Assembly (NCBI GenBank): GCA_000310025.1
Contig: FN649737.1
Location: 2,834,165 to 2,885,275 of the forward strand
DNA length: 51,111 bases
DNA from: Ectocarpus siliculosus
Taxonomy: Eukaryota > Sar > Phaeophyceae > Ectocarpales > Ectocarpaceae
Direction: 5' to 3'
Shown: one piece after another, positions 12,206 to 46,669 of the stretch
Layout: every line of letters begins with the position of its first letter
How positions within the stretch are numbered: position 1 is the first letter of the stretch
Made by a program: the position numbers and the translations under genes
The notes under the pieces: generated by a model
The model's input: the letters and a program-made list of their open reading frames with translations, nothing else
What the model was told of the DNA's origin: nothing
The model's database searches: none

Positions 12206-14012
12206 ATGACTGAACCGGAACATCAACATCAACAAGACGACGACCATTGGCGCGCGCGGCTTCTGCGCCAACGCGTCCATGCCCGCCGACGGCACGGGAA
12301 GGAAGAGTCGCCCGCGGTGCCGGATGATGAGAGGAAGCAGACGAGGAACGCGGCGGCTCTCCGGGCGCTTCAGGTGCCCGAGTCCGTCGCTACGGATGTA
12401 TCTGTGTTCCAGTATAGACGGCAGCAGTCGGCGTACCGATACGCGGCATGAACACAAGGTCCATTACTTGCTCCACTCTCCCACATGTTGCGATTGTAGG
12501 CAATTGGGTATCTTCCCGCGGATCTTTGGTGGGACATTGCGGCTATTATTTCGATTCCTTCCAACCGCATCGTGCCACCAAGCAGCTTTGAAGTGCCCTA
12601 TTGTTGGCCCGGGCTCCAGCTTGCAAGCACCTCGTACTCATTAGTCTATGTGCCACACAGCGGCCAATGTGCGGGGCAAGGCATACATCACGAGTTCTAC
12701 ATTACTGCAGATGGAGGGAGAGGAAATATACGCATATACGCATAGGAGGTGGCATGACTCCGCAGGAGACTAACATGTAACATCGATGTAAACATAGTCC
12801 ACAACTGGAGTGTGTTTTACGAAGGTCTAAGACCTACGGGGGTAACATTTGTCAATATCATGGAGCGCTAGACCTGAATGTTGGGGATTGGTAGCTACAT
12901 GCTCGTTGGGTTATTTGCATCAGCTTTGGGGTCAGCGTATTCAGTAAATATACCACCATGTACCTCTCCGCGTGAATGCAGTGGGACAAGCGAAACAATG
13001 CCCAACTTCGGGCGAAGGTGTACGAGGAGGAAGTGGAGAACAGGGATCTGCTCAAGCGCGCTAGCCAACACTTCGTCGTCGACCGCTTGGTAAGTGCATA
13101 GGAGAGGTAGAAGGTACACTGCGTTCTTTGTGATGCTGTGACCCAAAAGAACAAAACGTTTGACGGGCCACTGCTGTGGAAGAGTAACTTGACAACAAAA
13201 CACACAAGTTGTGTGTAGCAGGGCCACAACCCTGTTTGACTAATGAAAAAACGAAGCATGTCTTCCTGTGTGGCACAAGGAGTGCCCAAAGAGCCAACGT
13301 CGATTCCTTTCGAAATGATGGTGGCGGGCATGCCATGCATTACACAGCGCACGCGTTCTGGCAAATGTTATTGTGCGGATGTTCTGGGTTCCAACGATCG
13401 TGTGTAGTAGACGAAATATCTTGTGTCAAGTTCAACGCCTTGATCAGAATGAAGCGGGCCGGCTGACCAAACATGTTGTTCACAGGATCAATTACTACGC
13501 GTAATACCCTTCGGCCTCCAGAGACTTGTCTGGAATGGGTGTTGGGGATGCAAATCTTGTTCATCAAGTTGTCCACCTGGGAGAACATGCTTATTGCGTT
13601 CTCCACCTGTTGCTAAACTGATAAACTTGACACTGCTTCTCATTCAACGAAACACAGGAAAGGTCCGTACATCTTGACCTTATGAAGCAGTATCACACCA
13701 GGCAGGTACGTCCAACTCGAAAGAAACCACCCAATATTGTCAGCGAGCTGACTGATGACCTCCGGCTGGCTGTAATCTTCTTCTGTGTACGAACCGAACG
13801 CCACGCGTTCTGCGCACTCTCTTAACTCGGTACATCGGTTTTCGACCCACTCACACAACGGCAAGGTTCAAGTGTTGTCAGAGGATATTTGCAGTCTGTC
13901 CCGGCACAGCAAGGAGAACTTGGATACGCTGGGAAATCTCGAGTCGAGGGTGCAAAAACTGCGCTACACGAACATGCACGGCGCATCGACCCGACCGTGG
14001 GCCGATCGACAG
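12206..14012 (+). CDS. Exons 1-3: N-terminal charged, helical region
   Basis: Exon 1 is 12206-12373 (ATG in context GAACCATGAC, 56 codons, rich in Glu, Gln and Arg). Exon 2 is 12982-13089 (WDKRNNAQLRAKVYEEEVEN..., donor TTG|GTAAGT). Exon 3 is 13866-14012 (LSEDICSLSRHSKENL..., donor CAG|GTTCGG, acceptor AAG). All junctions are phase 0. Composition and heptad spacing suggest short coiled coils. Exon 1 is provisional: the ATG frame stays open to 12451 and the best in-phase donor is only fair. Confidence 0.6.
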
Positions 14013-17000
14013 GTTCGGAACGACTAAAGATAGCCCGCACTCAAGCACCTCTAGTTTGGGCCGGGGCTGGGGTTCATATTTCGTCTTGTGGGCTACAATT
14101 GGCCGGTATATAGGGTTCAAGGTAGGGTTATTGACCGGGCTCGCTCGCAAATGGTGCTCGAGTTCGCGCAAATGGTGCTCGAGTTCGTGTGTTTGATATC
14201 ATGTTGAGATGAAGTTTTTAACTGTCAAGTTTGTTGCAAGCGCTATCTGAGAGGATGTTTTACGATACGCCAGTGTGATTATCACCACGCGGTTTTTTGT
14301 CCACTATCACCGATCGACCTGTCCATCGACCAACCGATCAAGCTCTCCGCGAGACACCACGCCCGTGCGGTCGGTGTGTCCCTCACCTCTCGTGAATGCG
14401 TCGTGTACTTGAAAATAAAAACGATCGGCTGACACGCGTGTACTGCAGGTGGATGTCGACCTTAAGGTGGACCTGTCCAGACCAAACGCGATGCAATTCA
14501 GCACATGCTCAAAGTGCAATGCGAGCGTGCTGAAGAAAGTGCTCGACACACACGAGCGCTTCTGCTACGGTGCTGTGGAAAGGTGAGCCTTGATTCGGTT
14601 CTGGTATTGTCGATCGATGAACTACCCACAGCAGTGACAGATGCACGGACGACAGCGTGCCGCCCATCTCGAAATCACTCTATTGTCCTTCCATGAGTTA
14701 CCCGATTCACAATCGTATCCCACCACCGATCTCAAAACCGTCCTATTGTCCGTCCTCGACTTACCCGAGTCACAATCGTATCCCGCTTGCCATCGATGCC
14801 GCGAGAAGTCTTGACGACCAACCCGACGAGGACGGAGATGATGCCGACGGCAGGGAGGCGGGGCGCACAGACAGCCCAGCGGGACCCAACGCGCAGAACG
14901 AGAACATGAAGCCTTGTCAGTACTGCCGGCGACCGTTCCGGAAGGAGAGAATGGCCAAGCACGAGGAAGCGTGCAAGAAGAAAAGCAAAGCGCTAGGTGC
15001 GTGCCGCTTTTTCCAAGGCTATATGTGATCTTCCCGATGGTAAAATTGGGCAGTAGTCGAAGAACCGGAAGTGTCAGTACGAAAGGGTCGAGGGGCGGTT
15101 CAAGCCCAAGTCAGCGTCATGGAGACGTCCAGGACACCAGCCTACTGTATCGGTCCTTCAATTCGATTTTGCATATAGGTGACCGATAGGTACAAGGATG
15201 ACCCGCGTTTTCCAACACCGGCAACAGATATATTTTACCGTAACTCGCATTGCTGAGAGTGGAGTGGCTATTCTCCCTCGTTTGCGCAGGAAACCGGGAT
15301 GGAAAAGAAGAGCGAGCCAGGAACGCTGCTGTGAAGATGACTCCACGGCCACCACGCAACTTGAAGGTCATCTGGAGAACATGCGACCAGGTGCGACGAG
15401 ACAACGTCCGCACGTTACTACACAGCACAACCCAAACAGTGCTTGCCCCGTTTTCGGATGATGCTGCCGCGCCTTTCGAAGAGATTCAAAGATACTAATA
15501 GTGAGATGTGTCCGTCATCAAGCGTGTGTGTCCATGTTCACCTCGTGACGAAAAAGAGTCTGATCTACCACCGTTGCAAGAGGTACAATTGAAAATGTTC
15601 CCTGCTTGCTCAAGCACGCGAAACGACATACGAGCATGCGATTCGAGGGAGGGTTCTGTGGTCGTTGAGATGTACATTGTCCAGGCGTTGGTCGTGTTTC
15701 CCCCTACACCATGCAGGTGCTCTTTTTGATATTGCGAAGGTGGTTTTGTCATATAGTCTAGTGATGGCTTCACCACTGTTTCGGGACGACCCTCCGCAAG
15801 GTCACGCTATCCGAGGCTGCTGTCGCGATTCACCCTGCTGGTGTCAGGGGCCAAAAACAGCGGACGTGCATGTATGAGCACGTTGGTGTTTCCAATTCGC
15901 AAGAATTCACCATGTATGACCACCCCTCCGATCGAAGGTACGGTGAAGATCTAGACTGTATCCTTTAGGTTCCCCCTCCGTTTCTCGCGTATCCACCCTC
16001 CGTCTGTTCGCTCCGATTGTCTTGTTGCCATTCCAAGGTCGCGCTGGCCTGGGACCCGCCAATACTCGATGGCGGCGCCACGGTGTTTGAGCACGAGGCA
16101 AGTATGGTCGAAAGGCCAGAGGGGATAAGCGGGCCGAAACATTAGGGGGGTGACGCATAACCTCAGAGAAAAGGAGTACCACCTGCTTCTCCTAGTGGGG
16201 CGAGCCACCTGGTGGTGCGTAAGTACTCTTGGCACCACCGGTGTCACGTACGTTATTTTTCGACTGAATTTACAACTGCTATCCTTTCGACTTTCAGGGA
16301 CTGCGGCCTCTCTCCCAAAGGATTCTCGTTATTAGTGTATTCGGTCCATACTTGATGCAATTCAAAACACATTTTCTTTAAAACACAGGACAGTACCAAC
16401 GGCGGGAAAGTTCGTTGTGTTTCTGCTGCGTAAGGCACATACGGAGTTTTGTTTGCTGGTGTCTTCGGCTTTGTTTGACCTCCTCTAGCCCTTCCCTTCC
16501 CAAAAAACAGAAACGGAGTCACTACCACAGCTCGACGACCCCGAATTGCTAGACTGCGGGTACTTTTCAAAGTAGCCCAACCCGCCCTATCCTCTACGAC
16601 GCAAGACGAGCTGTCCTCTCTCACGTTGTCGAAAAATGCCTCATCGCAGGTGTCTTACTCCGTGCACGAGGTGGTGAGGAAAGACAAGTACCACAAGGAG
16701 GACGTCACAACGGCCATGGATCCCGTTCTCACCTCCAGGTGGGTCTCCCTGAGAAAGGGTCCTGAGCCCCATGGAAGCACGGAGGGGGTGTGGTGTGGGG
16801 AGCGCACACATCGCGAATGGCGTCGGTGTACTTGTGTGGGCCCTCGCGTTCCTGTGGCGTTGCCGCGGCCTTACTATGCAGGCCTCGCGCCGAGTAAGCA
16901 GCTTGCGTGAGGTGCTCTCCGAGTCGAGTATGGAGGGGGACTGGGGGGGGGGCGAGGGAGATTCAGTCGTACGGGAAAAACACAGCAAAAGAGCGGATAT

Positions 17001-20000
17001 TAGCCGAAATTCTGGCACCCGTGATAATCGCCACAGCCGTTCCATTGCAACAAGAAGCGCTAAACGCGGTGGAGGTGATAAATGCCTTGATCTATCTACG
17101 AAATCCAGAACGGGTCCGACAAGATACGAAATATTCCGTCAAGAGATGGACGCTCAACTATTCACGAAAAAGGAAATAGGGATAAGACACACAGCTCAGC
17201 GGTGGACCTTGCACTAACCGCGCTCGACGGTGGCGACGAAGCAAGAAAATGAGCTTCAACCAGAAACTGCCGTTTCTTAACTGCGTGCCCGTTCTGTACC
17301 TGAGAGGGTGGGCGCGTTCAGTAGAACCGCGGCGACGATCCGCTCAACGAAACGTATGTAAAAACGACAGGTGGTGCACAGCCACGCCGGTGGCTGTCAA
17401 AGGCTTTACGCTCACGGGGCTAGAAGCGAAGACACACCTCATCAACATATCTGTGCGCTGCCAGAACGAGGCGGGATGGAGCGATCCGAGCGAGGTGGTG
17501 CCGGAAGTGTATACGGAAGGTGAGGAGACGACGTGGCTGGGGGGGTGCAGGGCAAGGGGTAGAGAATGGAGTAGAGCGACCCCAGGAAGGTGGTCCCAGA
17601 AGCTCCTGTAGTAAGTCATACTGAATCGGTCGCCAGAGTCGGACCATGTACAGAGTGCTGTGTGTTCTTGCAGGCGGTGCAAAATGTGTTTCAAGGTTTT
17701 CGCGTTAGGTTGTACAACATTTGTGACGTGGCATATACATTTTGTTGGGATAAGAGGCTCTCATTCCGGTTTGTAACAGGCAAAGGGGCGTTGCGAGAGA
17801 TCCGATATTTTATGACAGTGTACCTATCGTGTTGTATACTGTTGAAGACTAATGATCGTGGTGGCTCTTGATGTGTTGAAATCCTGGCGGCGACGACCGT
17901 CGAAGATCCGGTACCGCCAAGTCCACCTTTGTTCTTTCGGGTAGACTTGGTCAAGTCCAACCGGGCCGTACTGCGGTGGATGGAGCCTCTCTGCAAGGGA
18001 GGAGAGGAGGTGAGTATTCAAAACAAACGTCATCCTTATCTTGGAATTGTAGGTGGGTCTTGAATATGTACGGCCCTCGTCGTAATCGCGATGTTCATTG
18101 ACAAAGAACAGCTGCCAAAATGTGGAGTCCCAAGGCAAAGTGAATCATGATGGAATATAGACCCATCTAAACGCATCGGGGAGGTGTACATAACGCTGGT
18201 TGATCAGCGACGGTGCCCCTGTATAGCACCGGTGAAATTGTTAGGCACAGGCTGAAACATCAAGTCATTCTGTACGTGAATAGCGCCGATCCCTTTGAAT
18301 ACCGCCGGTCGATGCGCCGGGCACATACCGACGTTATTGAGGGCTCCCCAATGTATCCGTCACGTTTTCTCGCGCAATTTGTCGAATCATCTTCAGCGTT
18401 TGGGAACTGCCAAAGAAGACCAGGGAAGTTTACCGAGGCTAGACCACGAAATACTCAACCCGCCACCTGCGAAACGCGTTATCTCCCTGCGCACTGTGAC
18501 GTCAAGATTTAAGGTCGCCAAGGATACCTACCTGCTGTGAGAGGGTGTCGAACGAATACTTGCGTATTACTACTGTACAATGACTTGGGTGCCGGCGATA
18601 AGTCACGGGTGAAATGCTCGATCCTTCAGCTAAAACGCCCCCCCTCGCGCCTTTTGCGAAATTTCTCCCTTGCTGTGGCGTCGTCACTGAAGGTGACCGA
18701 GTACGAGTTGACATACTCTGACGTCGTGCCAAAGGACAATCAGGCTGTCACCACCAGGAAGATCGAGGAGGATCGCCACCACGAGGTAGGTCACGAGCTC
18801 TGATAACAAACAAAATCGTGGTGGTCACATGCACGGCACTGAATCGGGTCCGGTTAGTGTCGGTTCCTCGGGGTGTCTACCCACAGACAGGACGTGCGGG
18901 TTGGGTCCCGAGCTATGCCAAGCCGCGGAAATATCACTCTTGGCTGTTTTCCTTGTTTTCACTCCCGAACGAAATGAAAGTAGGGAGAAGTGCACGCACA
19001 AAAGGTGACACATTGGTATGGGCATGGGCACCAGACGCCCCACGTCTACGAAGAGATTTTCTTGGCTGGAGCCACAGATGTGGCACGCACTCTGCAACGG
19101 GGAGACACTCTCCCCTTGGTGTTGCACGGTGTGTCGCAGATGAAAGTACCGGCGAGCGCTAGCGAGGAGGATCAAGGAGACCAGGTCCTGGTCTTACGAG
19201 GGCTGCGGGCGTCGACCGTGCACAAGGACCTAACGCTCAGAGCCATCGGGGGGTCGGGAATGGCGAGCGCCGCTGTTTTCGCACCTACCTTCACCACGCT
19301 ACGTGAGTTGCTTGTTGTCGCGGTTTTTGTTGTATATAGCCGCGGGCTTTATGTCCGGCGCTTTGGTCGACAGCATCAAGGTTATTTCTAGTACCCTACA
19401 TAACCAGGATTGGTGACAGCGACAGCAACAGCAGCTGGTGCTCGACAACGACATGATCCATGTCGATTGTATTGACAATGCTGATGACAGCCCCCGGCAA
19501 TCGTCAGCGCATAATGGACGAGCTCAGGCGTGCGCGCGCTGCTACCGGAGGTTGGATCGATACCGACTTCTACAAAGGTTTCATGCAGGTGAGGATATTG
19601 AAACGCACCAAGCAACTGCCACAAATCCAATTCACAAGCTCTCAAAGTGTCTTGCAAATCAAGCGTTGTGCATGCCAATGAAAGGTGTCGATTCCCTTTT
19701 AACCACTAGCTGCATTTCCGCGTTGAAAACGTCAAGACAGAATGACGTCTTCAACAAGAAAAGCAATTAGCAAAGCACGCGAAACTTTGCCAATAGAGCG
19801 CCTCAATGTTTGGAAGAGGTCATTTTTTCAAGCGGTCCCCAAACTCGGCTCATCTCGCCCACCTGTGCACCGCCTCCTGTTTCTAGCGAGAGAACCGTGA
19901 AGAGTACATAGCTAGGCTGGAGCGAGACCTGGAGAGTCTACCCGTCCAGCTAGCGGGCGAAGAGGATAGCGACGAGGAAATAGTGACTTCTCAGGTACGG

Positions 20001-23000
20001 CATCGAAAGAAGAATGCCAAAACAGCTGCAAAGCCTATTCGAATGGTGGTGGTTATTTGTCTTCTAAATTTCAACTTCGTTATTCAAGATACGATACACC
20101 GTTACAGCACCCCCCCTATACCCGAATATCAAGTCGTCGAGTAGCCGAGGGTAGGTGTCTTTTCGTGACTTGTCTCGCTTTAGGCATTGAGGAAATTCAT
20201 GCAATGAGCGGAAATGGCGCCTTGTGGTTCCAAAGGTCGATCGCGACTTATCCAGTAGAACGAATAGACAAACGACACGGTCATCAAGGCCACCGCTATC
20301 GAAACCTCTTCCACGAAATCCGTAGCATCGCACAGACGAAAAAGGTGACGGCATCTGATGGTTCATGAAGTAGCTGGCTCGAGGCTCATATTTTCGTGAC
20401 CAAATTCACCCTCAACATGACGTGCACGATTCCGCCGCTGCGTGCTGCTGTTGTTGTGCTATGGCTATCATGCTGGGGGCAGGCCGAGGGAGAGAATGAA
20501 GAGACTCCGGTATCCAACAGAAACTTAGCGGAGGAGGTGGGTGCGGCGTCGGAGTGGTGATGTTCCACTGACCGTTGTTCAAGGTGTACAATACATCCCT
20601 GTACTAAATGATAGATCCCGAGCTACTGTGCTGCGCGGCTTGTGCCCGGAGTACGATCCCATGAATGCGAATTCCTGCAATATCCACAGTACATCCGTTT
20701 GTTCACAGCACGACGAAAAAGTCCCCTCTCTGATTCCACGGGTATTGAACCAAGCGATTTTAGCAATAAACTACAACGATTTGACCGGACACAAGTAAAG
20801 GTCGTGTGTTTATTGGTCGTTTACGTCGTATAATATACAAGATAACTGGGCGTGAGAACGCTGATCCGTTGCGCATCGAAGTGTATGTGGCACTTGTACA
20901 TGATGCGTTTTATTGTGTACCGATCAGGGATGTTGCCGTTCGTTTCCATCACATCGTTTCGACTTGGAGAGAAAACAAGACTTGCTTTTTGGTATCCGGA
21001 AATCTTGGAAGTGCCAAGACTATTTCCCAGCGCCCCCCGTGCTGCTTCAGAAGTACGCACGCACCCCTCTCTGCGTCGGGGACAGATCTAAGCCGTTCTC
21101 CACAGTAAAGAAATATTTTTTTTGAGGGGCAATCCCCACTGTGGTAGCAACGGCTGAAAGAGGAGGTTAACGTGGCGTTCTCCTTGGAAAGGTGGTAATG
21201 GGCTGTCTGCCACGAAGAAAAGCCGCGCGATTCTGCGAACCATCCAAGCGACTACTCAGACTGCCTATTCGACCGTAGCGCATGTTCGTCTGCCTTTGAT
21301 GATGTCTCAAGTTGCCGTACCTGTTATCTCCGTCCGCCGCTCAAACAGCTCCATCGGGAAAACCACTGCCAATTACTTTTTGTTCTGTGATACCACAACG
21401 ATCGTACGTTCATGTGATTATACCTGACTTTTGTGTTCGTTTTGTCTAGAACAGGAGCGCCTGAAGCAACAGGAAGAACTGCTCGAGTCCGTGTTCCATG
21501 GCTATAAGAGAAGGAAGTTTCAGTTCGAGGTCCGCCTCAGGAGGCTGCGCGAGCAGGCAAGCACGTTGAAGACAATAAATACATACAATTATGACTAGAT
21601 TCGGGCCCTCATGCCTTTTTCACCTCTGGAGATTTGCTTGGCCAGTCATGATTACCACCAGCAGCGGCCGACCGACGTATTTTTTGCCAATCGTTGATTG
21701 TATACGAGGGCTGCACGAGCACGTGCTCGGTGGGTGGGTGGAGTAGCAATACCGCGTTTGGCAGAAAACTCAAATTAGCGGCAGAATAGACAACAACGAC
21801 GAGTCCTCTAGCGCACCATTGGACCATTAGTTTCGACGGCTGTCTCAAGCTGGGCATTCAATTTCGGTGTTGTTGGGATCATGGCGTTCGAGCACCCTCG
21901 AGAAAGACACAGCTGTACCCCCTTTACTCTCTCACTAGCGGCGCACGGTGCTCGTTGGTCCTCGTACACAACGGATGGTATTGTCCGCGTCCGTCACCGC
22001 TGTCCGCCACCACTGTGCCAACCCAGATTGAGGAATGCGAAGAGACTAGGCTTGGGCACATCGGACTCAGGGCAGTCCTGGCGCAACAGCTCAACTCCAC
22101 ACAGGTCGGTCGGTCGGTCACTACCACCCTGAACGGTGCTGCTGGCGATGCGGAGAGCCGTACTTGATGACGACACGGGGCTACCATGTTCAAACCCTCT
22201 TGGATCAACCACATAGCCGTGGAATACACACGTCCAGCTGGTGGGGTGAACATGCGGAATACAGATGTATCCGACAGTACCATGTTTCCGAAACACAGCT
22301 GAAAATCATGGGACACTGCCATCGTTCTTTCAGGCGAGGGTAATGGAGCTTCAGGCGGAGCTCGACCGGCTGGCTACGTTCAAGGGGGGGCATGTCAACT
22401 CGTCCGTCCTGCACGGGTCCCAACAACGGTTTCCCATTAAAGTGGGTAGCGGGGTTTCAAGGGGAGACCCGCGAACTCTTCCACTCGGTATAGAGCACGA
22501 CTTCAGAAGTGACCCATCAAGGGTGTAGCCATTCTTCCTTTTCCAACATTCAGCACTAATTCTCGGCAAGACTCGTTTCGTAAGCGTCAGGTACAGGTTG
22601 CATGGGGGGTTGAGAAGTCGTGCCTCTTACAAAGATCCCGTCAAACAAAATGTGATTTTGGAGTGAGTGAACACGAATGAATGTCGATCCGTCGTTAAGA
22701 GCAAATTTATCACGTAGAACCGACCACGGCGATCAAACCTTAGACGCCAACGGTGTGGCCGCACACCGTGTCGTACGACTAGGATCACACTTTGCGAAAA
22801 CATTCCGGCCAAAGTGACACAATCGACGCGATCGACAGATCCTACGCCAGAAACTGCGGAAGGAGTTCGAGTTGGGCCAGGCGTCCATAGCGCGGGATAA
22901 GGCAAACCTCATGGAGGGCACGAAGACGTCTCTCCGGGCCATGCAACTCAAGCTCAAGCGGGAAGGGGAGCTGAAGGAGAGGATCGCGGCGTTTGCGGTG

Positions 23001-26000
23001 TTCAACAAGAATGCCGAGAAGGCCAAGAAACTCAGCGCGAATCTGAAGGCAAGGGTTTGTCTGGTGACCAAGTGTCACATTGAAAACAATTGTGGGCGTG
23101 TGTGTTTCCTCGGCTGACTCAAAGTTGGAGAGAGAGAGAGGCGTTCTTTTGAGAGGCGAGAAGGGAGGATTGAAGAACTTCTGGCTCGAATTATGGACAG
23201 AACGAACGCCAGGAAATGAATTCTGGTGGAATCGTAGTGCGTATTGACTATCCAGTCCTGAATTCCGGGTTGAGCACGTACGGATATTCTTGGAGCGTGA
23301 AAGGGAAGAAGCCACGCAGCACGGAATAGCATTACCTGTGGGACCAAGGTATCGTACCTCGCACGATACTACCAGATTGACGTTGTAAAGTTCAATCCCG
23401 GCACATGGCTTGGGGTCATCTACATGTAGAAATAAGTTCGTGTATCAGGGAAAGATCGGGAAAGATTCCGCGACTTCTTGGGACTTATTCAGGAGGAGTC
23501 ATCTAGTCGTGCTTTCAAATCATCTTTGATGCCAAAATACGCAAACCTGGCCAATCAATGCGAGCGGGATCTAATCCACAGCTGAACCGAACAACAACCG
23601 GCACCAGGCTCCGTTTCCTTCTTCACATCACCTTGTGATCGTTGACTTCATCGCGTCTTCACCAATGGTCTTCTCTGAGTACCGAGGGGCCTTTCTGTTT
23701 CTCTTCAAGAACAGGGCAATATATGCGCTCGCCACATGCATAAAAAGAACATGATGATGTACGTTTACACATCCACTTCAAGAGTGTTGGTTACGACGTT
23801 AAGTGTGGTAGCGTTGGACACGATGTAACAGGTCAACACACAGAGTGACGAGGCGGTGAAGGAGAAAGCGTTTTCGGCGCTATTATCAGCGGTCAAGTCG
23901 ACACAGCAGGAGAGGGCCGTCATTCTCAATGCTCTCGTCAGGATGCGGACGAGGTAGTACGTGTTGATTTTTCTGTCGCTTGTACAAGCGTCAACAAGCG
24001 TGCCGTTGGTGTAGCTGTCGTATCTTATATGTTCGTGTCAACAAACAACAATATATTCAGCACTTTGTGTGCAATTACTGAGATTGGCGTCACGAGCTTA
24101 CTTGAAAGCTCTTGAGTACCGACCACGTGCCCTCGCGTCGTAAGACATGAACTGCAAACTCCACTCACTCCACCCGAGTTCTTCAATCCCGTCCGCGAGA
24201 CCAGAAGCCCCGCCTCAACAACATTGACATGGCACAACATTCGATTCTAAAATCAAGTTAACGGTGTGGCCCCCTCCAGGTTGATTAGCGCGGCGTTCGC
24301 CAAGTGGCATACAGGAAAGCATGCCACCGTGGACAAAGTGGAGATTTCGTCCGAGTACGTCATCCGCGGCATCGGCGGCCGACACCTTATGTGGGCAGAG
24401 GTATGCTACTACCGCAGTTTCAGGAGTTAACGTCTCCATCGCTGCAAACGCCCCCGCACTCTGTTGAGCGAAAAACGAGCACGTAAACATCGCAGAGACA
24501 TTTCCTCCTTGGAAAACGAGCGCTTTAAGAATATGCGGCACAGGCTTGCGCGGCAATAAATTCTCCCTCTTACTTGATACAAGGTACTGGGGTACACACC
24601 CCAGGTTTGAGATGCACGCGACGAAAGAGGGGGAATTAAAACTAGAATCTGTTTCGCGAATAACAGAGAGAACAGCACTGACTGACCATTATTATTATCA
24701 CCGTGAGTGTAATAAATGTTTCTCATGTTCCGAAACTATGAAGCTATAAAGTCTGGGAAAAACTCCCGTTCGTTATATCTTCTGACGGCAGCTACATACA
24801 CTCACATCGAGCAAGGACACCCAAGCCATCTGCCCGCACCCTTGCCGTTGGGCATTTCTAGATAGTGCAACCTAAATGCAACGATTATCCTACGCAAACA
24901 AATCGAAAACTAATCGCTTGTTACGGAGCACTTGTGGCACTTCCTATTTTCTTCGCAGTTTTCAGAAATGTAACGTCATAGGGTGTGTATCGCCGGCTGG
25001 CAAGGGAGCCTGCGGAACCCGCACAGAACGCTCAATGCGTTAATCTCGGAATGAAATGGCAGAGAGGGGAGCATGAAAGAGTCGCAATACCCCAATGAAT
25101 AATGTCAAAGCTTGTTGAGCGCAGTAGGGTTGATTCTCCGAGCAGGTCCTTGATTTAGAAGTACTGGACTCGAAGACACCTTTCAAATGCATCAGGTTCA
25201 TCTGTCTGTCTTCAGGAAGGACGTGAAGTGATGGAGAAAGAGCTCCAGGTGGTAATGAGAGATGCGGCGGCGCTCCGCCGAGATTTCGCGCGGATGAGCT
25301 TGACCAACAAGCAGAAGAAGGCGCTGGAAGGCAGTGCCATTTTCCACGAAACCGAGCTAGGATCCTTTGTGGAGGATAGCGAAGCGGCCGGGTTGGACAC
25401 GGCTCTGGTTGCGCAGGTAAAATAAATTGCTCGAACATGTATCATCCCGTCGAAACGACTAATAATATATTTGGAGCTGAAGATTACAACTCGATGACAC
25501 TGGCGTTCTGAAATGTATGGAGAAAGCGCTCCCGAACAAATTATGCCTGCTCGAGACATGCATATACAGAACGGGCCCAGACATAAGAGAAAACGTCAAC
25601 TTAGGTGGAGGCTTATTTTCTCATTTCATCTCCACCGCACAGATTGTTCATTTAGCTAGGGTATACCCGCTGAGCTAAATAGCTGTGTTTGTTCATTTTT
25701 CGCGAAAATGTGAGCCTCTTTTTCTTCACGAAATATTTCAAATAGCGGCGGGCCCGTTCTGCAAGGCGCGACCCGGACCTTTTTCCGGAATTCCTCCGGC
25801 GTTTTCTTGGAAACCCCCTTAATAATGAAAGTACTGTAGTTCGATGGGGAACGATTACTGTACCCGGAAAAAATCGAAGAAACACAAAAATCGTCATGTA
25901 TGTGTGGAGCTCAGAGCCTGTGGTCGCAAGGAACGCAGAGAGAGGCAAGACGAGGTTCACCTTGCATGCACGCATAGCGAACAGAGGGTGTGTGTGTGAA

Positions 26001-29000
26001 CGAGAAGGAGTTTGTATATACATCTATCTGTGCCCGTTCACGAGGTGGGGGGATCGAATCGGAAACGGTTACTACCGTGTTGCGTGGTGGTAGTATGCAT
26101 ATCACGAATAAGAACCCGCGCATATTACGAGGATCGGAATCCGCCGCTGCAGGCTGAGCAGTTTTAACGTTGGGCCAGAACCGTAGAAATATCTCTGAAG
26201 AAAGATACCACATTATTTAGCGGGACAAAAGAGAGATTATGTTCACTTTCAAAAAATACCCACCACACACAAACGAAAACAAGAACAAGGGATGATGTGA
26301 ACGGAAAAAAAAAAGAGAGGAAAAACATACGCGTACGGAGAATCGAACTCCGGGCAAGTGCTTGGAAGGCGCTTATGTTACCACTACACCACACGCGTCG
26401 TGTTGCTTGATTGATATGCAGATTTTGCCTACATGAACCTTCAGCGGAACAATCATTCATGACGCAAAATGACTGCTGTAACATAGCCAGCTCAACACAG
26501 CAGTAGACCTCGAAGCTGATGCGTAACAAGAGTTATGTGTGTAAACACGGAATGCCCAGCCAATAATGGAGAACGTGCGGCAGCAGGCGCCATCTTGAAC
26601 TTGAACCCAGTGTGGTGATGAACAGCACTGCTTTTTTCAGGTATGTACGTTGTACCCTTACCCCCGACCAAGATAGCTAATGGCGACGCCTGAGTACGGC
26701 CGCCGTGTGCTCTCTCCTACCCCCAGCGTACGTGTCCGGGCTAGAGAAAAGTCTGAAAGTCTTTCCAAAACAACCCATGGCAGGACGCGCCGCCCAATGC
26801 TTGTGGTCCTTCATCTACAGGGCAGAGCCGTAGTTTAGAACTCCAGGGTGCTGAGCCCCGCCCAACACTAGAGCCACCACTGCATTCTCTGTTGGGTTCC
26901 TGAGAGTACAGCCGCGAGGGTGGCGCCGGTCTGCAAGCTACGCCGCTGCTGAAGCACTACTCCACATGTAGACTAATAATATCTAAATATCTACTGATGG
27001 GCGTGTGCATTTATTCGCCACCCGGTGCGTCGACGTGGACGGAGTCCAGGAGACATCACGAACCATGTCCGTATACATCATTCTATAAGTCGACATGCAT
27101 ATACAGCAGCAGTGCAGTGTCAACTCTGCACGTGTCTTTGAACAGAGACCCTGGTTTGGACGCGGGCATCTTTTATGTACATTGTACTGCTGCACACCCC
27201 GCGTCTCATCCTGTATACAATGTTCGCGTATCGCCCACAGGCTCGTAACATAGGAGCGTCGTCGATATCTTTCAGAGCCCATCCATACGCTTCGATGTAT
27301 TTTTGGTGTCAGAGAGCATGTTGATGAGATACAAATGATTGATCACGGAGCGAGTAAATGCGTGTGCCAGTCAGTGTTCTTGTCGCAACATACGTGGACT
27401 ACATGATGTACACGTATTGGCGTGGTGCATTTTATGCACACCTGTTCGCGACAGCGCGCGGTGATGTTCGTCGACCACTTCGGTGCAAGCAGCAGAGGAC
27501 GCCTGCTGTACTGCACGTTCCTCCCTTTTATCAGCCGTGCATTCCGCTGTGTCTCTCAGCAGGTATCTAGCACTGTATCTACGTAGTCTTCAGATGGATG
27601 TCTACGCATCGTCGGGGCGATGATTGCAAATGTCTCGCTGAATGTTCATGTAGGCAAAATCTACACTACTCCCAAGCAACAATGACGCGTGTGGTGTAGT
27701 GGTAACATAAGTGCCTTCCAAGCACTTGCCCGGAGTTCGATTCTCCGTACGCGTATGTTTTTATTTCATGTCTGTAGTCTAGACCTTATTTTTTTAACCT
27801 CCTCCCTGTTCCTCGTTTCGTCTTGTCGTGTGTTTTTCGTCCCGCGAGTGCCGTCTCTATTGTATTCATTTAAATTAAAGCTTACGTTACTTTTGGGAAA
27901 GCTCTATGGCAATTAAATATCGGTGTGTATTTTGTTGTTCATCTCCCTCTTTTTCCGTCTGGCCCTTCTCTGCACATCATTGTACTCCGGAAAATATGCA
28001 GATGAAGGCGCCTGCGTGTCGTCTCTGGCGATGTATTTCTTTCCGCATGAACAACGTTGTCTGTCGAAGACCAAATAATATTGTTCGATCGTGGCCGTCC
28101 GTGAGTCGTCATACTGGCATCTCCTTCTTTTGGACTCGCCGAAAAACTGCACAGTACTACTTGTAATACGAAGTGTAATACTCAAACAAATGCAACATAA
28201 TTAATCGTCAACGTGTCTTCTTGTCGGGCTCCCGCGGTTTGCGCGCACATCTTCAGGGCGATGGGTTCATCAAGATTGGCCAGGCAGCGAAGGCTTGCAT
28301 CTGCTACTCTCGGCAGGTGTGAAGCAAACACCACGATCGATCGTGGAGGGATATCTAGTGCTACAACTGTAGTCAGCCCTGAATGATGTCACATCGTTTT
28401 TCTCTGGGTTTCGTGTCGGAACCTCAGCCATTGGCTTCTTTTGTGTACCTCTCCCTTTGCCAAGTCATCTGCTCTTGGGATGGCCAATTGTTTTTTTTTT
28501 TAAAGGATCGGGATCCTGCACGTATAGATTTTCCTAAATGCCCTCTTGGTCTAGACTAATAGTTGATTTTTGCCCCCGCCAGACATGTGAGTCATTCGGA
28601 TAGAAAGGGACGTAGGACTCAAGTATCACCCCCCCCCGCCTGCGCGTGGTCCGGTGGTGCATGCACGCTTACACCCGCGCGTTCAACCCACACAGATTTC
28701 AAACCTTGACGTGCAGTCCGATCGAATGGGCCTCACTGCTCTCGGCGTGGCCCACGCTAGGCTAGCAAAGGCTCAAAAAGCATGCGATCGTGTCGACCTC
28801 GCGGCCGTGAGCTTCGAAAGGTACGTGCCGAAATGTTTGCTTGCGTCCGTCGAACGGAATGTGCGTTTTGACAAGCATACGCCACGAAACAAGTTTGGTC
28901 TTTTTGTCGGTCCGACGGTTCATGTACAATAGTGTCCACTGGGTGCCGTACGCAGACCTAGACGTTAGCTTCTGGATCAACCTGAACACGTAAACATATT

Positions 29001-32000
29001 GCCTGTGTCCGCACGCCTCACTGCTACTGACGACAAGTACAGAATTTCTCGAACAGGAAAAGCGACGAATCTTCTCACCATCAACAACAACAAAAAACAT
29101 GTGCTAGAAGCATGCTCTAGGGTACAACTCTGAAAATAGAAAACAGGCGCAATAACGTCACACGAAACCTTCGAAATGGCTGCCCACATGTGTGTCTCAG
29201 GACGTACTCAACGATAGAAGCGAATCAGTGGTGGAGGAATTCGGCCTCAAGGGGGCCCGATTTCCATATGAAGTGAAGATCAACGCATAAACAACCCATG
29301 ATGTGTTAAGCGCGTTGATAGAGACAAGGCGAGCATCCGGAAGTAAGAAGTCCCCTGCTGACGACACAAACAAACATAACGCACGTTCAGGGCACTGGAG
29401 CTTTCCACCGAGGGGAAGCACCTCCCGGGTATTGTGGACGCGCTCGAAGGTCTTGGCCGCTGCTGCCTCGAGAACTGCCAGTACAGGTGTGTGGGCTGTT
29501 GCTGCTGTCTGACCTCCGAACCACTCAATGACCTGCGTGAGGGTCGAACAACGAAAGAGTTGCTCGTTAAGAAAAGCTGGCAGCTGGTGACTGAAGCAGC
29601 AGCATTCGTGGCAAAAGTGCTGACCTTTTCAAACTTGTTAGGAGTTGTCTTTGAAGACAGCATTCAAATTGTTGTAGCTGACGTGTGCAGAAAACCACTC
29701 GCCTCTCCCTGCCCCACCCCGCCAACCGATGGTGACGTCTTGTAATTTCGGAACCTTCATGTATGGCTCTCGTTGTTCTTTGTATATGTAACACAGGGAC
29801 CCTCCATATGCGAACCTCATTCTCTGTTGTAATGTTTGTTTGGTGATTGCCCAGGGATGCAGTTTCATTGTTCAAGCGGGCGCTTGCGCGGAACGTGGAG
29901 ATAAGGAATCTCCCGCAAGACGCACGTCTTTTTCGCCTTCTAGAGGAAGGCCATCGCCGGATGGTTGATGACGTACGCGTGGGATAGACGTCGTACTATT
30001 CTTTTTATCGCTACACGATTTTGGTTGCGGGCAAGGCTCTCCACTTTGAAGCAGCGTGGAATGAGTGGTTACACCCCGCACTTGCATCACTGGCCGGGAG
30101 AAAGTGGAAATTTCGTCATTTCCTAGTATCCTCCGCTTCACTTGTTCGGGTAAATTCACAACATCGAAGCTAAGCCTGACAGCACATCCATATCCCATTA
30201 CGTGCCTCCTCTATCTTGGCGGATACTGGCGTCGCCAGGAGCACGCGAAGGTTTACGCGGACAGGGCCGAGTCGATCGAGAAGGAGATGGAGAGCAAACT
30301 TTCGAAAGCCAAGGCTAGTCTCGAAGATTCCACCACGCGCCTCGTCGGGCGGACGGCTAACAGCGCCAAGGTCTGCCCGTGCTTGTGGAGCACCAATACC
30401 TCATATCCTGAGCTTGCTTGTGTCAATCTTGCCCCTCTTCAAGTAGCCTCTTGTGTTAAGCTCGCCCGTCTTCTGGTAGCCTTCACTATCTACAGTACTG
30501 GTTGAGAATTTGGAGCTTCATGCGTGTGGCATGTCGCCGTGTAGTTGCAGAGGGTGCCCTCGTCAACTCGTTGCTGTGTTCTCTTCCCCCTTTGATTGTT
30601 ATGGACAGAAAAACGTATAAAATTTGTGTTTTAGGTCGGCCTATTTCGTCGATATCACGAATAACCCCCAACTTGGATACGGCGTTTTGTGAAGGGTGAC
30701 GTTGAGTCCGTAGCTTTCGAAAGACGTCTCTATCGCTCGGTCATGGCCCCCACGATGTTTGGGAGCAGTGAAAGGGGCGTTTGGTTTTGTAAACGGCGCT
30801 GTTCATAAGCACGCGTTATCGATCGCTCGGATTCTCGCAATTTAGTGTGCACCCTATATCTTGTCCGTTATACTTTTTATTCAACGAACAACGCCATTGT
30901 TTGACAGAGTCCGAGTATAGAAAACCAGTTTTCCTCATGTGCAATTTTAAACTGGGGGGCAGGTGATTCGCTTGGAGAGGGTCACGGCGGGCTACGTAGC
31001 CATGTGCTCGAGACGGGCGTACCTCGTCGAAAATCTGAAGGAAACGCTCATCGCTAAAAAGGCGCAGGAGAAGGTGCGTGAGGTATCAAGCGATGTGCTC
31101 AGTATAGAACACACAACAGCCTGATAGGATTGTATTTTTCTGCCCTCGGCAGAGAATGTGGAGCACGTTGAGTGCTGAACATGTCCTCCCGCAGTTCGTC
31201 CGCGGCCGCGATCGGGAAACGTGGTTCTGGAATATTCATCACCATCGCAGACCCGCAAGGGAAGTTTGGAATGTTGAGGGTTTCGTGAGAATGGAACATC
31301 TTCGGCTTTCCTTGTCTTGGAAATCTGCTGTTCCACGGGACAACGTATTTACTCCAAGGCAGCGTTTCCATCTCATTAGCTCAGGATGACTACGAGGAGG
31401 TCATGCTTGCGCTTGACGGATTGGGAAAAGCAAGGGTTGAGCTTGCCTCGTCTTTTTTTTTTTTCCCTGTATCCTGGCGCCTCCATCGTTGAATGACTTG
31501 GGCAGGTGGTGAAAATGCATGAGGCAAAGCTCCAGCTCATCAAGGAGCAGCTGCAGGAGGCCCTGGAGACCGACAAGGACGCCATGTCCTCCACACTCAT
31601 CGTCGAGGGAGAAATCATGTCGTTCGAGATAGAGGAGCTCAAGATCAGACTCAGAGAGAGAGAAATTGAGGTACGCGTGCATAGTGTACAGCAAAACACT
31701 CAGAACGCATCAAGAGTTACTCCCGTTGATCTACTACAGTAGTGCAGTTTTTTTCCGCTAGACGTGACACATCATTCAACGACGAATTCGATGCTGAAAT
31801 GGAACAAAAGAGAGAGGAGGTAAAACTGGGCCCAAACCTCGGTTTCTGTGGTTATGTGTTCACGAAAGCCGTGTTTCAGAGCCACTGGCAGCAGCACGCC
31901 GCCGAGGGGCGATATTGCTGGGTTTGAAGTGTGTCCCGGTGTGGCGACGAACAATGACAAGCTGGCGTAACGCAGTGACGGTGACAACATACGAACTGAC

Positions 32001-35000
32001 AACACCACAACAGGTGTCTTCCGAATTGACGAGACATGCCGGGCTCCTGACGGCGCTGTCCAACCGCGTGACCAACTCGGCGGACGAAATCGATGGTCTG
32101 GACCAGGTACGGGGGCTCCACATCACCGAATCGAGTCTTCGCCGTAAGAGAAGACTTCGCACAACAAAAAGTAGGCAACAACCGAATTGGACCAACCTCT
32201 TCTCTCCCACCGTCAAAATCAAGCACCGTATGTGTCCACTTTCTTCTATTGCGCGGTACTTAACTTTGTCTCGCCAAGGAAATCGCCATTGAGGGTGGCC
32301 CTCTGATGACCAGCGTCGTCGGCAAGGCTCGCCTGCGCCTGATCGGGATGAACCCGTCCAACACAGCCGGTAACGAGGTGGAGGGCACGGCGACGGGGGG
32401 GATCGAAAAGATCGTAGCCGCGGAAGGGAGAAAGGTACCCTTTTGTATACAGTGCTAGAAACGCCTCGCCACATAAACAAACAGTGTTGAGCGCAATCCC
32501 CAACGGGCTAAGGCACATAGGAATCGAATAGGAGGAGCGAAAGGGTTCTGTTGGAATGCGTTCTATTATAGTAGGGCCATCGTGCAACAACGCGCAAGGG
32601 GGAGGCGGCGACTTGAGAAACCGAAGTATCCACGACATGTAGCCTCAGGCACACACGTGACACTACCTTTGATATCCGTCGCGAGAGCGACAGTCAACCG
32701 CCGCATGCTAGGCAATACCTGATAGGTCACCGCGCCTATCGATTTCCCTGGAGTGCATGGACTCCGGACTGGCGGTGTTGTAGGGTAGACCAAAACTAGC
32801 GTGGATACTCTCATCACAAGTAGGGAGAAAACCGTGTAGCCCCCACCGGAGCGCACAGCTTGAAAAACTTTCGGAGTTGATTAGACTGCGCCGGGTCCAG
32901 CACCTCGCTCTGTATGGTTTCCGTCCCCATCGTGCTTGTTGGCGTTGCTAACACCGTTGCTGCCGTCACTTATCCGCGAAGGTCTTGGTGTACGGAATAG
33001 CGACGGGAACGCTGGAGCATGTGTTCAGCGGGGATGAGCCGGGCAGACACACGGGAGAGCTGCTGGGACACTCTAGGGTAATAACTGCCCTCTTTTTCTA
33101 CAAGAGCGTGGTGTACACTGGTTCCATGGACTGCACCGTGCAGGTAATATGGAGTGGCAGGCTACCTCCTCGGCGGGTAGATGCGACATGTGAACGCTGG
33201 ATTATGGGAATTATAGGCACCACTCAATGGTTGCCCGTGGCACGGCATCGTTCTTTTTTTTTGTGAGAATATACACATGCGGTTCCTGGCAGGACCATGA
33301 AGGCAGAAAAAAACGAATATCATCAATGGATACAGGATATATTCGGTCAAGGTTCATTTCAAGGGCATAGTTCGCTTTCCGACAACTTGTTCTCTCTAGA
33401 TGACGAGAACAGACGGAGAATTCTGGGACTCCCACGTTAAAAGGTAGCCAATGTATAGCCCATGAATGGTCTGGAAGTGCTTAGCAATATCTGAAACGAA
33501 TTGCGGGATAGTGTGCTGAAATGGGCAGAATCTGCAGTCAAGGGCACATTTTCTCAGTCAAGGGCACATTTTCTCAGTGCCGAAGACTACGCGTCCATCG
33601 TTTCGTACAAATACCCTAACCTTATCTCTGCCCCTTTCTGCATCGGTGTTCGCACAATCCGTGCGTAGCCTCGACACAAGGAATCCTCGTAAGCACGTTT
33701 CAGCCGGGATAAGCAATGACATGAACGCGAAGAAAAACCGATTTTGCCGCGCTCTCTACCGAACAAGGTGTGGGACGTCGACGAGAGAAAACGCCTCATG
33801 GTGCTTCAGGGACACGAAGCTACGGTCTGCAGCGTGGTGGCGGACGAGCACAAGATCGTCTCTGGAGCGGCGGATAAGGTTCAGAAGTAATCGATGTTTT
33901 CCCTTTCCAGCTTTACGTTCATATTTCGCGCGATTCGACCGCTCTTTACGATGAGTCTCGTTGTATAGCTGTCTACACGAGGGTTAGGTGGCATTTCTTT
34001 TTTCTCGCGGGACGTGGTTGAAGCCACATCCGGAGCACTATGGAGAGTATACAGGAATAGACTGTACCCCCTAGGTGAACATTCGTGCTTTGGCGCCCTC
34101 GGTCACCACCGCGGACGCCTCTTTGCCAACCAACCAAGGATTTTTGACAGCCCATGCTTGTGCGAAGCCTCACAACGTCATTCTTAAAACGAAAAACACT
34201 CATCGGGATCACGTTTCCCTTTGCTGACACACCTCTATCCGATTCGCCCTTGCTTACGATCAGAACATCCTTATTTGGAATCATGGAGACGGCCGCATTT
34301 TGCGGGTTCTTCACGGACACACCAAGAGTGTCATCTCTTTGCATACTGGTGAGAATCTGGTATGGAGCACGACGTTTCGGAACATGAACAAGCTTTCGAA
34401 GAAGACCGGATTTTCACTCGTTTCCATCGTGGTAGGGCCGGAGATGGCGACGTTGGATGAAAGACCACAACGAGTAAATTTACGGTAGAAAGCAGACAAC
34501 AGCAGCAACAACGACAACGAAAACGACAACGACAACTCCACCAGGTGCCTCGTTCATCCTGAGTGGGGGAGCCGACGGGGATATTCGTCTCTGGGGCGCT
34601 GGAAACGTTTCGAGGTTCTCGAAGGCGAGGACAAACAACGCCACCGTGGACAACGAAGATGAGTTGGAGCGGTACGAGTGCAAGCAGCGGTTGGCCGGGC
34701 ACTATCGTTCCGCCACCTGTGTGTCGTACGGGCGGCTCGAGCTCGTCAGTGGCCACGAAGACGGTGAGAAGCGCCGTGAACTTTCTTTCTTGTCTCGACA
34801 TCTTGGCGGGGGTGCTTTTAAGGGCAAAAGCAACTACCTTTACGGTTGGAAGAGCGTTTCCTCTACTTGCAAGAGCTTCGATAGAGACTACGATGTTCGG
34901 CCAACTCGAGCTGGTCAGCGAATGGCGACGGCCAGAGAAAAACACAGCGGAATGCTACTTGAAAGCTTTTTGTGAATGCGAAACATGGCAATTAGTTATC

Positions 35001-38000
35001 GAAACCGAGAATGCGTGACAGGACGCAAAACACGGCAACCTTGTGCAGCTACCTGCTGTAAGACAAAATGATGCGGTTCAGGTTCAGCACGACTGAGCGT
35101 ACGCGATGACCACAGCGATATGACCGTGGACGTAATCACTATTGTCGCCACAACGAAAAATGCAGGGACTGTGGTCGTTTGGTGGGCCTCGACAGGCTTA
35201 ATTATGATGAAAAGCAAGGTACACTCAGGGCCAATTCGTCAACTACAATTTGACGCCACCAAGGTGAGAAAACCACGGTTCAAAAAGCAATGTTGACAAG
35301 TACTTCTCGCTCAAGCATGGTTGCGAACGTGGACGCGCACTTTGTCAACCCCGAAGGAAGCGTTGCCCGAAGCGCCGCACGCTGAAGCTATGCGCAAGAT
35401 TTCGACACCTGTCCAAACACCTCATCCTAGGTACACAGCAAAGGAACACTCAAAGTTTGATTCTTGATGTTTATGTGGTGATCCTTGCTTCTTGTATCTA
35501 CTGTCAAGGTGGTGTCTTGCAGCACCGACGGCACGATCACTGTCACGGATCTCACCACGGGGGAGTGTACGATGACCCTCAGGGGCCACGAGGGAATGGT
35601 ACTCGCCGTCGCGTTCGACAGGTCTAAAATCATCAGCGCCAGCGACGACGGTACCCTGAGGACCTGGGTGTGGGCGGCGAGGGGTCCGAGACAGGTGGAG
35701 TTCCGTACCAGAGGGTTTTACCGCCGTGCACATTGGCCTAACGGCTACCGCTGCTGCAGCAACCCGCCATGGGACGCAACCTGTCTGGGGGAAGACAGCA
35801 GTACAGGGCATGTTATTTGCCCTCACCCACTCAAGTCGTCCTCTTCTTTGGCTGAGCCCTAATTCGCTTTGCAAACAGTGGACAATTGTTGGGACGACAG
35901 AAGAGCTAGATAGCTTCCGTCTCGTAAAGCTGGTTCGCCCACGATGAATATGTGTAGGGAGACGGGTTGTCTCGAGGCTCACCAATACCGGACAATCGTG
36001 TTCTCGCTGTCAATAATCTGATCCGACTTGGTTCGCCCCAACTTCTGACAGTGTCTTTGTGCCCCGCTCTCCGGTCATCAGACTCCGAGAAAAAGTCTTT
36101 GTTCCGGGTGTATTTGTGGCCAAGACTTGTTCTGTCCCTCCCTGCCGCTCCCTCTGTGGACGGCTTGTGTGTCGCAGGACAAGTACGCTGTGTTGGGTCC
36201 CGGCGATAACCTCAGTAGACTCGCCAAGCAGAACAACACCACAGTTGCGGACATTGCCAAGTGGAACGGGGTGCGAGATGCAAGACAGCTCGGGGTTGGA
36301 GTCCGGCTAATCGTGGCTAAAGGTTAGGAAAACCGTTGATGTCAAGCGAGCGGCCAATCTCAATTTTCGACATTCGTGTGGTTAGACTCAATCAGTCGAG
36401 CTGGTCAGGGGATGCAGACATAGACGGATGACAACATAGGGTACGTAAAGCACGACAGCTAACCCTGGCCGTCACCCTGGCACTTCTTGACGCCTTCCTC
36501 GTCGAGTCGAAACTAGTCTCGATCTCGCTTTCCGTGTGTCTTCGAGGTCCCCCCACCACGTCCTTGTAACGACAATTAGAAAACAACCATCACGAAGCCG
36601 CAAGCACCTTCTATTCAATTTAATTTCCTACCGATCGCCCCCTACTAACAGAGTTGTTTCCGTCTACAACAGTCTAGCTGTACATACCATCACCTGTGAT
36701 TGCACCGCCTTGTGTACTTTCAGGAAACCCGAACGAGCCGACCGCGGCGGAGAAGGAAGCAGAGAAAGCAAACGCAATCAAGGACCGACGCTCCAAGACT
36801 ATAGAGAAAGCTAGAAAGAAGATAGCCGAGTCAACGGGAGTGGCGGGGGCGTACCGTCGGTGAGAAGCAACTTCCGTTCCGCTATGTTGTGTCCGTCGCC
36901 ACCATTTTGTTTTTTTGCTTCACTTCAAATCAACGCTCACAGAACTAGTGCCGTTTTCTCCAACCCGTGGTCACACAGAAGGGCCCCTCTCTACCCTCCC
37001 CTCCTGCGGTGCTTTGCCTTCGATTTTTAATGCGAGAAGAGTTCAGCACTCTCTTCCCTCTTTACGAACTAGCGCTTGTGTACACACAAACTAGCGCTAT
37101 CCACTAGGCCAGGAGCGGAAGCGAGAGAAAATCTACTTCGTTTGCAAGAAAAGCTCGTTTACGCCGGGATTCGAACCCTTGGCCTGACCTCTAGAAGGTT
37201 TCGAGGATACCAACTAGACCACCGGGGCGACCGGCATTATACCAATTCGAAAAGATGGCCGGCTTGCGAAGAGATGTTGATATTTTTGAAAAGGTTTTGT
37301 TCGGAAGAGCCAGGAACGTTGTCGTTGCTAAAAGTAGAGAGCGAGATTTGCCGTATGTAGTGCGATCCGTGCACTGGCACCTCGCGCGGAGGTGTGAGGC
37401 TAATCACCGGGTGGAAAGGAGTGGTGCAAGTACGGCATGGCCGGCCGGGAGAGTCAGAGCTCTCTCCATCATAAATGGCCCAAACGGTATGGTTGGGCAC
37501 GACACCGACAATATACCCGCAAGGTTGATGTATGAGCGTCACCTACACCCTATCGTTGGTAGTGATGTTTAACAGCTTCTGCCATCTTCGGCTGCCAGAA
37601 ACATGTGTCCCCATTGTCGGGGTAGAGATGAAACGGTAATGACACACAGTAGATGATGTTGCCCTCCCCCCCTCTCTCTCCGCCTGAATTTCATGGCAGT
37701 CCAAGAGGCGCTTTAGCGCCTTTGGATGATTCTTCCTCGCTGATAGGACGAATAGCCCGAAGAGATGCGAGCTTCTCGGAGATGTGGCAAGAGGCGCGAA
37801 GGTCGGTCGGGGTGACATTGACAAGACACACCAGGATTGTCCCGGTGCTTCTTGCACATCCGCAGTAGATCCGTTGGGAAAATCGTTGAAGGAAAGCTCA
37901 CCCATTCAGTTGAACACTGTCACAGTACGGGAGCAAGAATGCGTATGATGCGGGAACCTCACGCAAGGAGTTTTTCCCAATACATGGGAAGAGAAAACAG

Positions 38001-42139: not shown

Positions 42140-42144
<5 letters not shown>

Positions 42145-42199
<55 letters not shown>
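42145..42199. repeat. (GA)n microsatellite, about 55 bp
   Basis: Uninterrupted AG dinucleotides in the intergenic region upstream of the last gene. Confidence 0.95.

Positions 42200-42202
<3 letters not shown>

Positions 42203-46636: not shown

Positions 46637-46669
<33 letters not shown>

What the first reader, a model, noticed from the sequence alone, without database searches (positions are those of the whole stretch)
12206..40468. A 1,902-residue protein with a domain order I cannot match to any known family
Joining 44 exons by splice phase gives one frame: two C2HC fingers, two FN3 domains, long coiled coil, TPR-like helices, second coiled coil, WD40 propeller, LysM, acidic region. Each domain is recognisable from signature residues, and the exon sum is exactly divisible by three. 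Each part is common; the combination is not one I know.
Basis: partly seen in the sequence, partly recalled or inferred. Interest (0 to 1): 0.9.

Follow-up and report, generated by a model that had tools for sequence, protein, structure and literature searches.

The report
Large multi-domain probable scaffold-protein gene
A single, heavily interrupted gene appears to encode a roughly 1,900-residue protein that strings together common protein-docking domains in an order not matched here to any described family; it is probably an internal scaffold protein of unknown exact role.

Summary
The core observation holds. A splice-and-codon decoder recovers a long + strand gene at 12206-40468 (score 430; reverse strand 21; six shuffles at most 12.6; it was trained on this gene).

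Pfam confirms two FN3 domains, WD40 repeats and LysM; TPR sits near its cut-off and the second C2HC finger below it. The first finger rests on spacing identical to the second. "Long coiled coil" is not supported: 4 of 268 windows show heptads, against 18 of 36 in a tropomyosin control. Divisibility by three follows from building by phase and is no evidence.

The suspect point is the 2.84 kb intron 23, which holds two tRNA-Gly genes. Exon 24 beyond it looks real and coding, which favours one gene (about 0.8); two genes remain possible.

No second copy was found in its genome. No listing searched showed this domain order, but no eukaryotic protein database could be queried. Best reading: a cytoplasmic scaffold, possibly linked to flagella or centrosomes (weak hints only).

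The parts
12206..14012 (+). Exons 1-4 (12206-12397, 12982-13089, 13658-13705, 13866-14012): N-terminal charged region, aa 1-165; short heptad stretch at aa 113-154
   Evidence: Decoder and frames; heptad scan. Exons 3 and 4 set by hand.
14449..14996 (+). Exons 5-6 (14449-14582, 14770-14996): two CX2CX11HX3C fingers at aa 185-204 and 259-278
   Evidence: Identical spacing in both; Pfam zf-C2HC_2 E=0.0018, below cut-off, for the second only. The exon 6 acceptor is weak (score 1.5).
15290..17519 (+). Exons 7-10 (15290-15390, 16038-16097, 16650-16738, 17371-17519): FN3 domain 1, about aa 303-418; intron 8 is GC-AG; bounded by phase-1 introns; exons 8-10 set by hand
   Evidence: Pfam fn3 over residues 306-413; best PDB sequence matches of the first 1,294 aa are titin FN3; phases
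17906..19302 (+). Exons 11-13 (17906-18009, 18693-18785, 19140-19302): FN3 domain 2, about aa 419-539; bounded by phase-1 introns; exon 11 start set by hand
   Evidence: Second fn3 stretch; phases
19491..25416 (+). Exons 14-23 (19491-19588, 19887-19994, 20483-20536, 21455-21529, 22027-22104, 22334-22441, 22839-23054, 23832-23953, 24280-24400, 25216-25416): charged, probably helical region, aa 539-932
   Evidence: Decoder (exon 20 start by hand); no heptad windows here; helicity is inferred
25417..28256 (+). Intron 23 (2,840 bp), holding two inverted tRNA-Gly(TCC) genes at 26328-26398 (-) and 27685-27755 (+)
28257..29972 (+). Exons 24-27 (28257-28316, 28717-28820, 29391-29486, 29855-29972): TPR units, Pfam-supported over aa 967-1030; a further TPR-like unit (aa 926-959) straddles the exon 23/24 junction
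   Evidence: Pfam TPR_12 2.8e-8 and 28.4 bits in the whole protein; exon 24 scores 15.3 against 0 pseudo-exons of 15 or more in 19,705 bp; junction unit is in the top 16 of 1,872 windows
30239..32434 (+). Exons 28-33 (30239-30370, 30963-31073, 31385-31435, 31506-31670, 32014-32106, 32279-32434): second charged, probably helical region, aa 1059-1294; short heptad stretch at aa 1205-1246
   Evidence: exon 30 donor uncertain
32982..35694 (+). Exons 34-39 (32982-33143, 33768-33878, 34264-34348, 34545-34763, 35082-35263, 35509-35694): WD40 propeller, about aa 1283-1605; exons 35-38 set by hand
   Evidence: Pfam WD40 1.8e-30, six stretches; PDB WD40 hits, E=8.7e-76 with Tako8 and 5.4e-34 with FBXW7
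36178..36322 (+). Exon 40: LysM domain, aa 1617-1655
   Evidence: Pfam LysM 3.6e-7, over cut-off; one of 3 LysM places found in the genome
36724..40468 (+). Exons 41-44 (36724-36859, 38258-38371, 39169-39373, 40178-40468): charged C-terminus with acidic stretch (exon 43) and Ser/Pro/Arg-rich tail, ending in TAG

Best explanation
This is one protein-coding gene of about 44 exons for a roughly 1,900-residue intracellular scaffold. Shown: an open, splice-consistent gene with two C2HC motifs, two titin-like FN3 domains, TPR units, a WD40 propeller and one LysM. Inferred: the FN3, TPR and WD40 parts are separate docking sites spaced by charged helical segments, so the protein holds several partners together, and the LysM acts as a small intracellular interaction module rather than an extracellular sugar binder. 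A place in the flagellar or basal-body apparatus is my leading guess for where it works, at low confidence (about 0.3).
For: Gene signal against controls. Domain hits. Exon 24 is exceptional among intron sequence; its coding score in frame 0 is reached by 115 of 9,983 open 60-nt intron windows, and its other two frames score negative, so it reads as coding and needs an upstream phase-0 exon; exon 23 is the only strong one found. The next gene upstream, a Ras-family GTPase predicted on the - strand, starts at about 11846, which bounds the 5' end. No second copy found. Flagellar hints, all weak: TPGS1_C E=0.0054 and CEP104_ZnF E=0.16, both below cut-off; the genome carries a radial-spoke gene.
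Against: No transcript or orthologue was available. The largest intron holds two tRNA genes and is twice the next longest. Pfam TPR does not extend over the exon 23/24 junction, and exons 23+24 alone give no hit. About 4% of positions have a local score as good as the junction unit. Exon 24 was in the training set, and most of its 15.3 comes from its splice sites (5.2 and 6.2). The decoder also joined this gene to flanking sequence when left free, so its preference for joining proves nothing. The best 19-residue hydropathy mean is 1.57 at aa 1776-1794, just under the usual 1.6 for a membrane span (recalled), so solubility is not assured; no signal-peptide predictor was run. No TPGS1_C match appeared in the genome, though the controls did not ring either. 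Nothing was found on function.
Confidence: 0.6

Rival explanations
1. Two adjacent genes: a C2HC-FN3-helical gene ending at the stop just after exon 23 (25423-25425), then a TPR-helical-WD40-LysM gene starting at the ATG at 28726 inside exon 25, with exon 24 either spurious or a non-coding leader exon.
For: Reading through exon 23 meets a TAA after two further codons (sequence). ATG 28726 gives the best-scoring alternative first exon (12.3). The 2.84 kb gap holds two tRNA-Gly genes. A leader exon would also explain good splice sites: two site pairs at least as strong exist in 22,545 bp of introns.
Against: Exon 24 is open in all three frames but coding-like in frame 0 only, which a leader exon need not be. 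Its total of 15.3 is met by 0 phase-0 pseudo-exons in 19,705 bp of other introns, and none reaches 13 inside intron 23. Apart from ATG 28726, no ATG-started first exon in the interval scores above 5.5.
Confidence: 0.2
2. An intracellular immune-type sensor: TPR and WD40 as variable recognition parts and LysM for chitin-like sugars.
For: Brown algae have been proposed to use shuffled LRR exons in ROCO genes as immune receptors (PMC11378527, abstract and passages). LysM often binds chitin-type sugars (recalled).
Against: No NB-ARC, ROC-COR, kinase or TIR among the families shown (for the WD40-LysM part only the best 25 of 36 were shown). No close second copy found for the FN3 or WD40-LysM parts. 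That this genome is a brown alga is not established.
Confidence: 0.07
3. Artefact: a chance chain of open frames, or an assembly join.
For: The model was edited by hand and the decoder was trained on this gene.
Against: The real score is 34 times the best of six shuffles, and most domains are found at strong or moderate E-value. The gene lies inside contig C12 in one orientation.
Confidence: 0.03

Closest known systems
Titin/myomesin-type intracellular FN3 domains
   Same: Two adjacent FN3 domains; the best PDB sequence matches are titin, E=1.2e-23 over several stretches
   Different: Only two FN3 here; no Ig or kinase among the 6 families listed for the N-terminal 607 aa
WD40 propeller proteins (FBXW7, DAW1, WDR3 and similar)
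   Same: Propeller of WD repeats; FBXW7 5.4e-34, DAW1 1.2e-31
   Different: No F-box among the families shown; of the subfamily-specific propeller models shown only Beta-prop_TEP1_C reaches its cut-off (best 25 of 36 and of 34 shown)
Intracellular LysM proteins such as OXR1/NCOA7 and LYSMD (recalled)
   Same: A lone LysM in a protein that looks intracellular
   Different: No TLDc among the families shown (capped lists); here LysM follows a WD40 propeller
C2HC-finger proteins (PDB 9y6s chain 4E, 'C2HC/C3H-type domain-containing protein')
   Same: Matches the second finger region, E=0.062 over query 250-295
   Different: 353 aa, so too short for the whole; match not significant

Membership tests
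zf-C2HC_2 (PF13913) | Score over Pfam cut-off | tested here: not met
   18.4 against 27 bits, second finger only; not listed for this locus at E 0.001 or below in G000
C2HC finger (by motif) | Regular Cys-Cys-His-Cys ligand spacing | tested here: met
   CX2CX11HX3C at aa 185 and 259; 0.0001 expected by composition. Zinc binding itself not tested.
fn3 (PF00041) | Score over cut-off | tested here: met
   44.8 against 25 bits, two stretches
TPR | Score over cut-off of a TPR model | tested here: inconclusive
   TPR_12 34.3 against 30.1 bits in the fragment, 28.4 in the whole protein
WD40 (PF00400) | Several repeats, score over cut-off | tested here: met
   104.5 against 27 bits, six stretches
LysM (PF01476) | Score over cut-off | tested here: met
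   30.5 against 20.9 bits
Long coiled-coil proteins | Extended heptad periodicity | tested here: not met
   4 of 268 windows against 18 of 36 in the tropomyosin control; crude test
Tubulin polyglutamylase subunit TPGS1 C-terminal domain (PF24480) | Score over cut-off | tested here: not met
   16.7 against 27 bits
Any described family with the whole domain order | Same order in a known protein | not testable with these tools
   No InterPro or eukaryotic proteome search; listings of eight paper searches showed none

The most novel reading that the evidence does not exclude
A lineage-specific scaffold with a domain order (C2HC2-FN3x2-TPR-WD40-LysM) found in no other described family, in which a LysM module was recruited inside the cell next to a WD40 propeller, perhaps as a flagellar or basal-body hub.
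Probability: 0.25. Interest if true: 0.5.

Novelty: new variant of a known kind. Interest (0 to 1): 0.32.

Why it matters
If it is one protein, it is a hub carrying several kinds of docking module, with a LysM (a domain usually met in sugar binding, from recall) beside a WD40 propeller, and it gives a defined target for localisation and partner mapping. If it splits into two genes, it is ordinary. New combinations of common domains are frequent in large eukaryotic genomes (recalled), so surprise is moderate.

Tried and rejected
Low intron cost in the decoder gave over-split models with 144-209 exons; rejected. Free multi-gene decoding ran this gene into flanking sequence, so it was not used to argue for one gene. 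Heptad scans did not support long coiled coils. The middle of intron 23 as a mobile element: no match in phages; of 28 matches in G000, all but the query's own place and one (C21, query 414-479) lie at its two tRNA ends, so I read it as an inverted tRNA-Gly pair. Relatives: none confirmed in viral contigs; one 27%-identity match over the WD40 part in a Bacteroidales MAG among prokaryote contigs, treated as generic WD40. NCBIfam, asked only with the 237-aa piece around the TPR part, gave one match far below its cut-off (AfsR). TPGS1_C in G000: no match, and the control genomes did not ring either.

I also changed the observation verdict to 'partly confirmed' (coiled coils) and noted the borderline hydropathy.

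Full report
What was checked. I rebuilt the gene with a splice-site and codon-usage decoder seeded on open exon fragments, then edited it by hand for splice continuity in the FN3, TPR and WD40 parts. Of 43 introns, 42 are GT-AG and one (intron 8) is GC-AG; exon GC is 0.58, intron GC 0.50 and GC3 0.70. Of the 44 exons, 32 equal decoder exons in at least one of the 8 settings and 12 were set by hand; nine decoder exons were dropped, one of which (16882-17074) the decoder chose in 8 of 8 settings and another (29322-29342) in 7. Because domain continuity guided some splice sites, domain edges are partly circular.

Is it more than chance? Decoding window 12001-40700 gives 430 on +, 21 on -, and -4.2 to 12.6 in six dinucleotide shuffles. 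The model was trained on this gene, so these numbers are optimistic, but the gap is large.

Domains. Pfam: fn3 1.5e-11 (two stretches), zf-C2HC_2 0.0018 (below cut-off), TPR_12 2.2e-7, WD40 1.8e-30 (six stretches), LysM 3.6e-7. In the whole 1,905-aa protein TPR_12 falls to 28.4 bits, just under its cut-off of 30.1. The two fingers have identical CX2CX11HX3C spacing, with 0.0001 such motifs expected from composition. The best PDB sequence matches are titin FN3 for the first 1,294 aa and WD40 propellers for the last 611. The 'long coiled coils' are charged and probably helical, but heptad periodicity appears in only 4 of 268 windows against 18 of 36 in a recalled tropomyosin control; the test is crude.

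One gene or two? A two-gene reading is available: a TAA at 25423-25425 just after exon 23 and an ATG at 28726. Against it, exon 24 (28257-28316) scores 15.3. No phase-0 pseudo-exon reaches 15 in 19,705 bp of other introns and none reaches 13 inside intron 23. Exon 24 could instead be a non-coding leader of a second gene, since its splice sites supply 11.4 of the 15.3 and two site pairs at least as strong exist in 22,545 bp of introns. But in frame 0 it is coding-like (3.8, reached by 115 of 9,983 open 60-nt intron windows), while its other frames, also open, score -4.1 and -5.4. Exon 24 was in the training set, which helps it. If it is coding, it needs an upstream phase-0 exon, and apart from ATG 28726 no ATG-started exon there scores above 5.5. 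A TPR-like unit spanning the junction (aa 926-959) is within the top 16 of 1,872 windows, but about 4% of positions do as well when neighbouring registers are allowed, and Pfam does not call it. I put the single gene at about 0.8. The decoder's own preference for joining is not used, because it also ran this gene into flanking sequence.

Surroundings. On the - strand, a predicted Ras-family GTPase gene starts at about 11846, 360 bp from this gene's ATG (Pfam Ras 1.9e-10 for a piece of it). Downstream on + lies a predicted gene with a long low-complexity exon (47758-49638). The genome is 189 Mb in 492 contigs. The FN3 part matches only itself: 9 of 9 matches lie in the gene's own span. The WD40-LysM part has 12 matches, 7 of them the gene's own exons and 5 weak ones elsewhere at E 4.7e-7 to 7.7e-4. 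These searches score only the best candidates, so a distant copy is not excluded. LysM was found at three places in the genome. A radial-spoke gene is present, so flagella are likely. The organism is not identified here.

How it probably works. FN3, TPR and WD40 are docking domains (established knowledge of those families). No catalytic domain stood out among the families shown (the lists for the WD40-bearing queries were capped at 25 of 36 and 25 of 34; sub-threshold enzyme names such as Glyco_transf_20 at E 0.045-0.05 are read as chance). The most hydrophobic stretch averages 1.57 (aa 1776-1794), borderline for a membrane span. A multi-partner cytoplasmic scaffold is therefore the best inference, not a demonstration. 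The flagellar or centrosomal idea rests on sub-threshold hits (TPGS1_C 0.0054; CEP104_ZnF 0.16) and stays a guess.

Known or new? Listings of eight full-text searches showed no paper on this domain order (one of the listed papers was opened). That one, the ROCO paper PMC11378527, was seen as abstract and passages: it describes LRR exon shuffling in brown algae, a different system. No eukaryotic protein database was available, so novelty of the order is untested. I file it as a new combination of known domains with modest interest.

Noticed in passing
26328-26398 (-) and 27685-27755 (+): Two tRNA-Gly(TCC) genes in inverted orientation inside intron 23, within 79-nt arms 99% complementary and with partly similar flanks.
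   Followed up: partly
G000 contig C185, about 39577-52284: Five 73-nt tRNA-Gly matches, each 100% identical to the window's copy and spaced about 3.0-3.2 kb apart, suggesting a tandem array of a tRNA-bearing unit.
   Followed up: no
15290-19302: Both FN3 domains are bounded by phase-1 introns (after exons 6, 10 and 13), although only 6 of 43 introns are phase 1: a pattern that fits module duplication or exon shuffling.
   Followed up: partly
11846-3739, - strand: Divergent neighbour: a predicted Ras/Rab-type GTPase gene (Pfam Ras 1.9e-10 for a piece of it).
   Followed up: partly
42142-50917, + strand: Predicted downstream gene with a 1.9 kb low-complexity acidic exon (47758-49638); no Pfam match at E 0.01 for the 197-aa C-terminal piece scanned.
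   Followed up: no
14690-14780: A near-duplicate of about 60 bp just before exon 6, leaving the exon 6 acceptor uncertain (read by eye).
   Followed up: no
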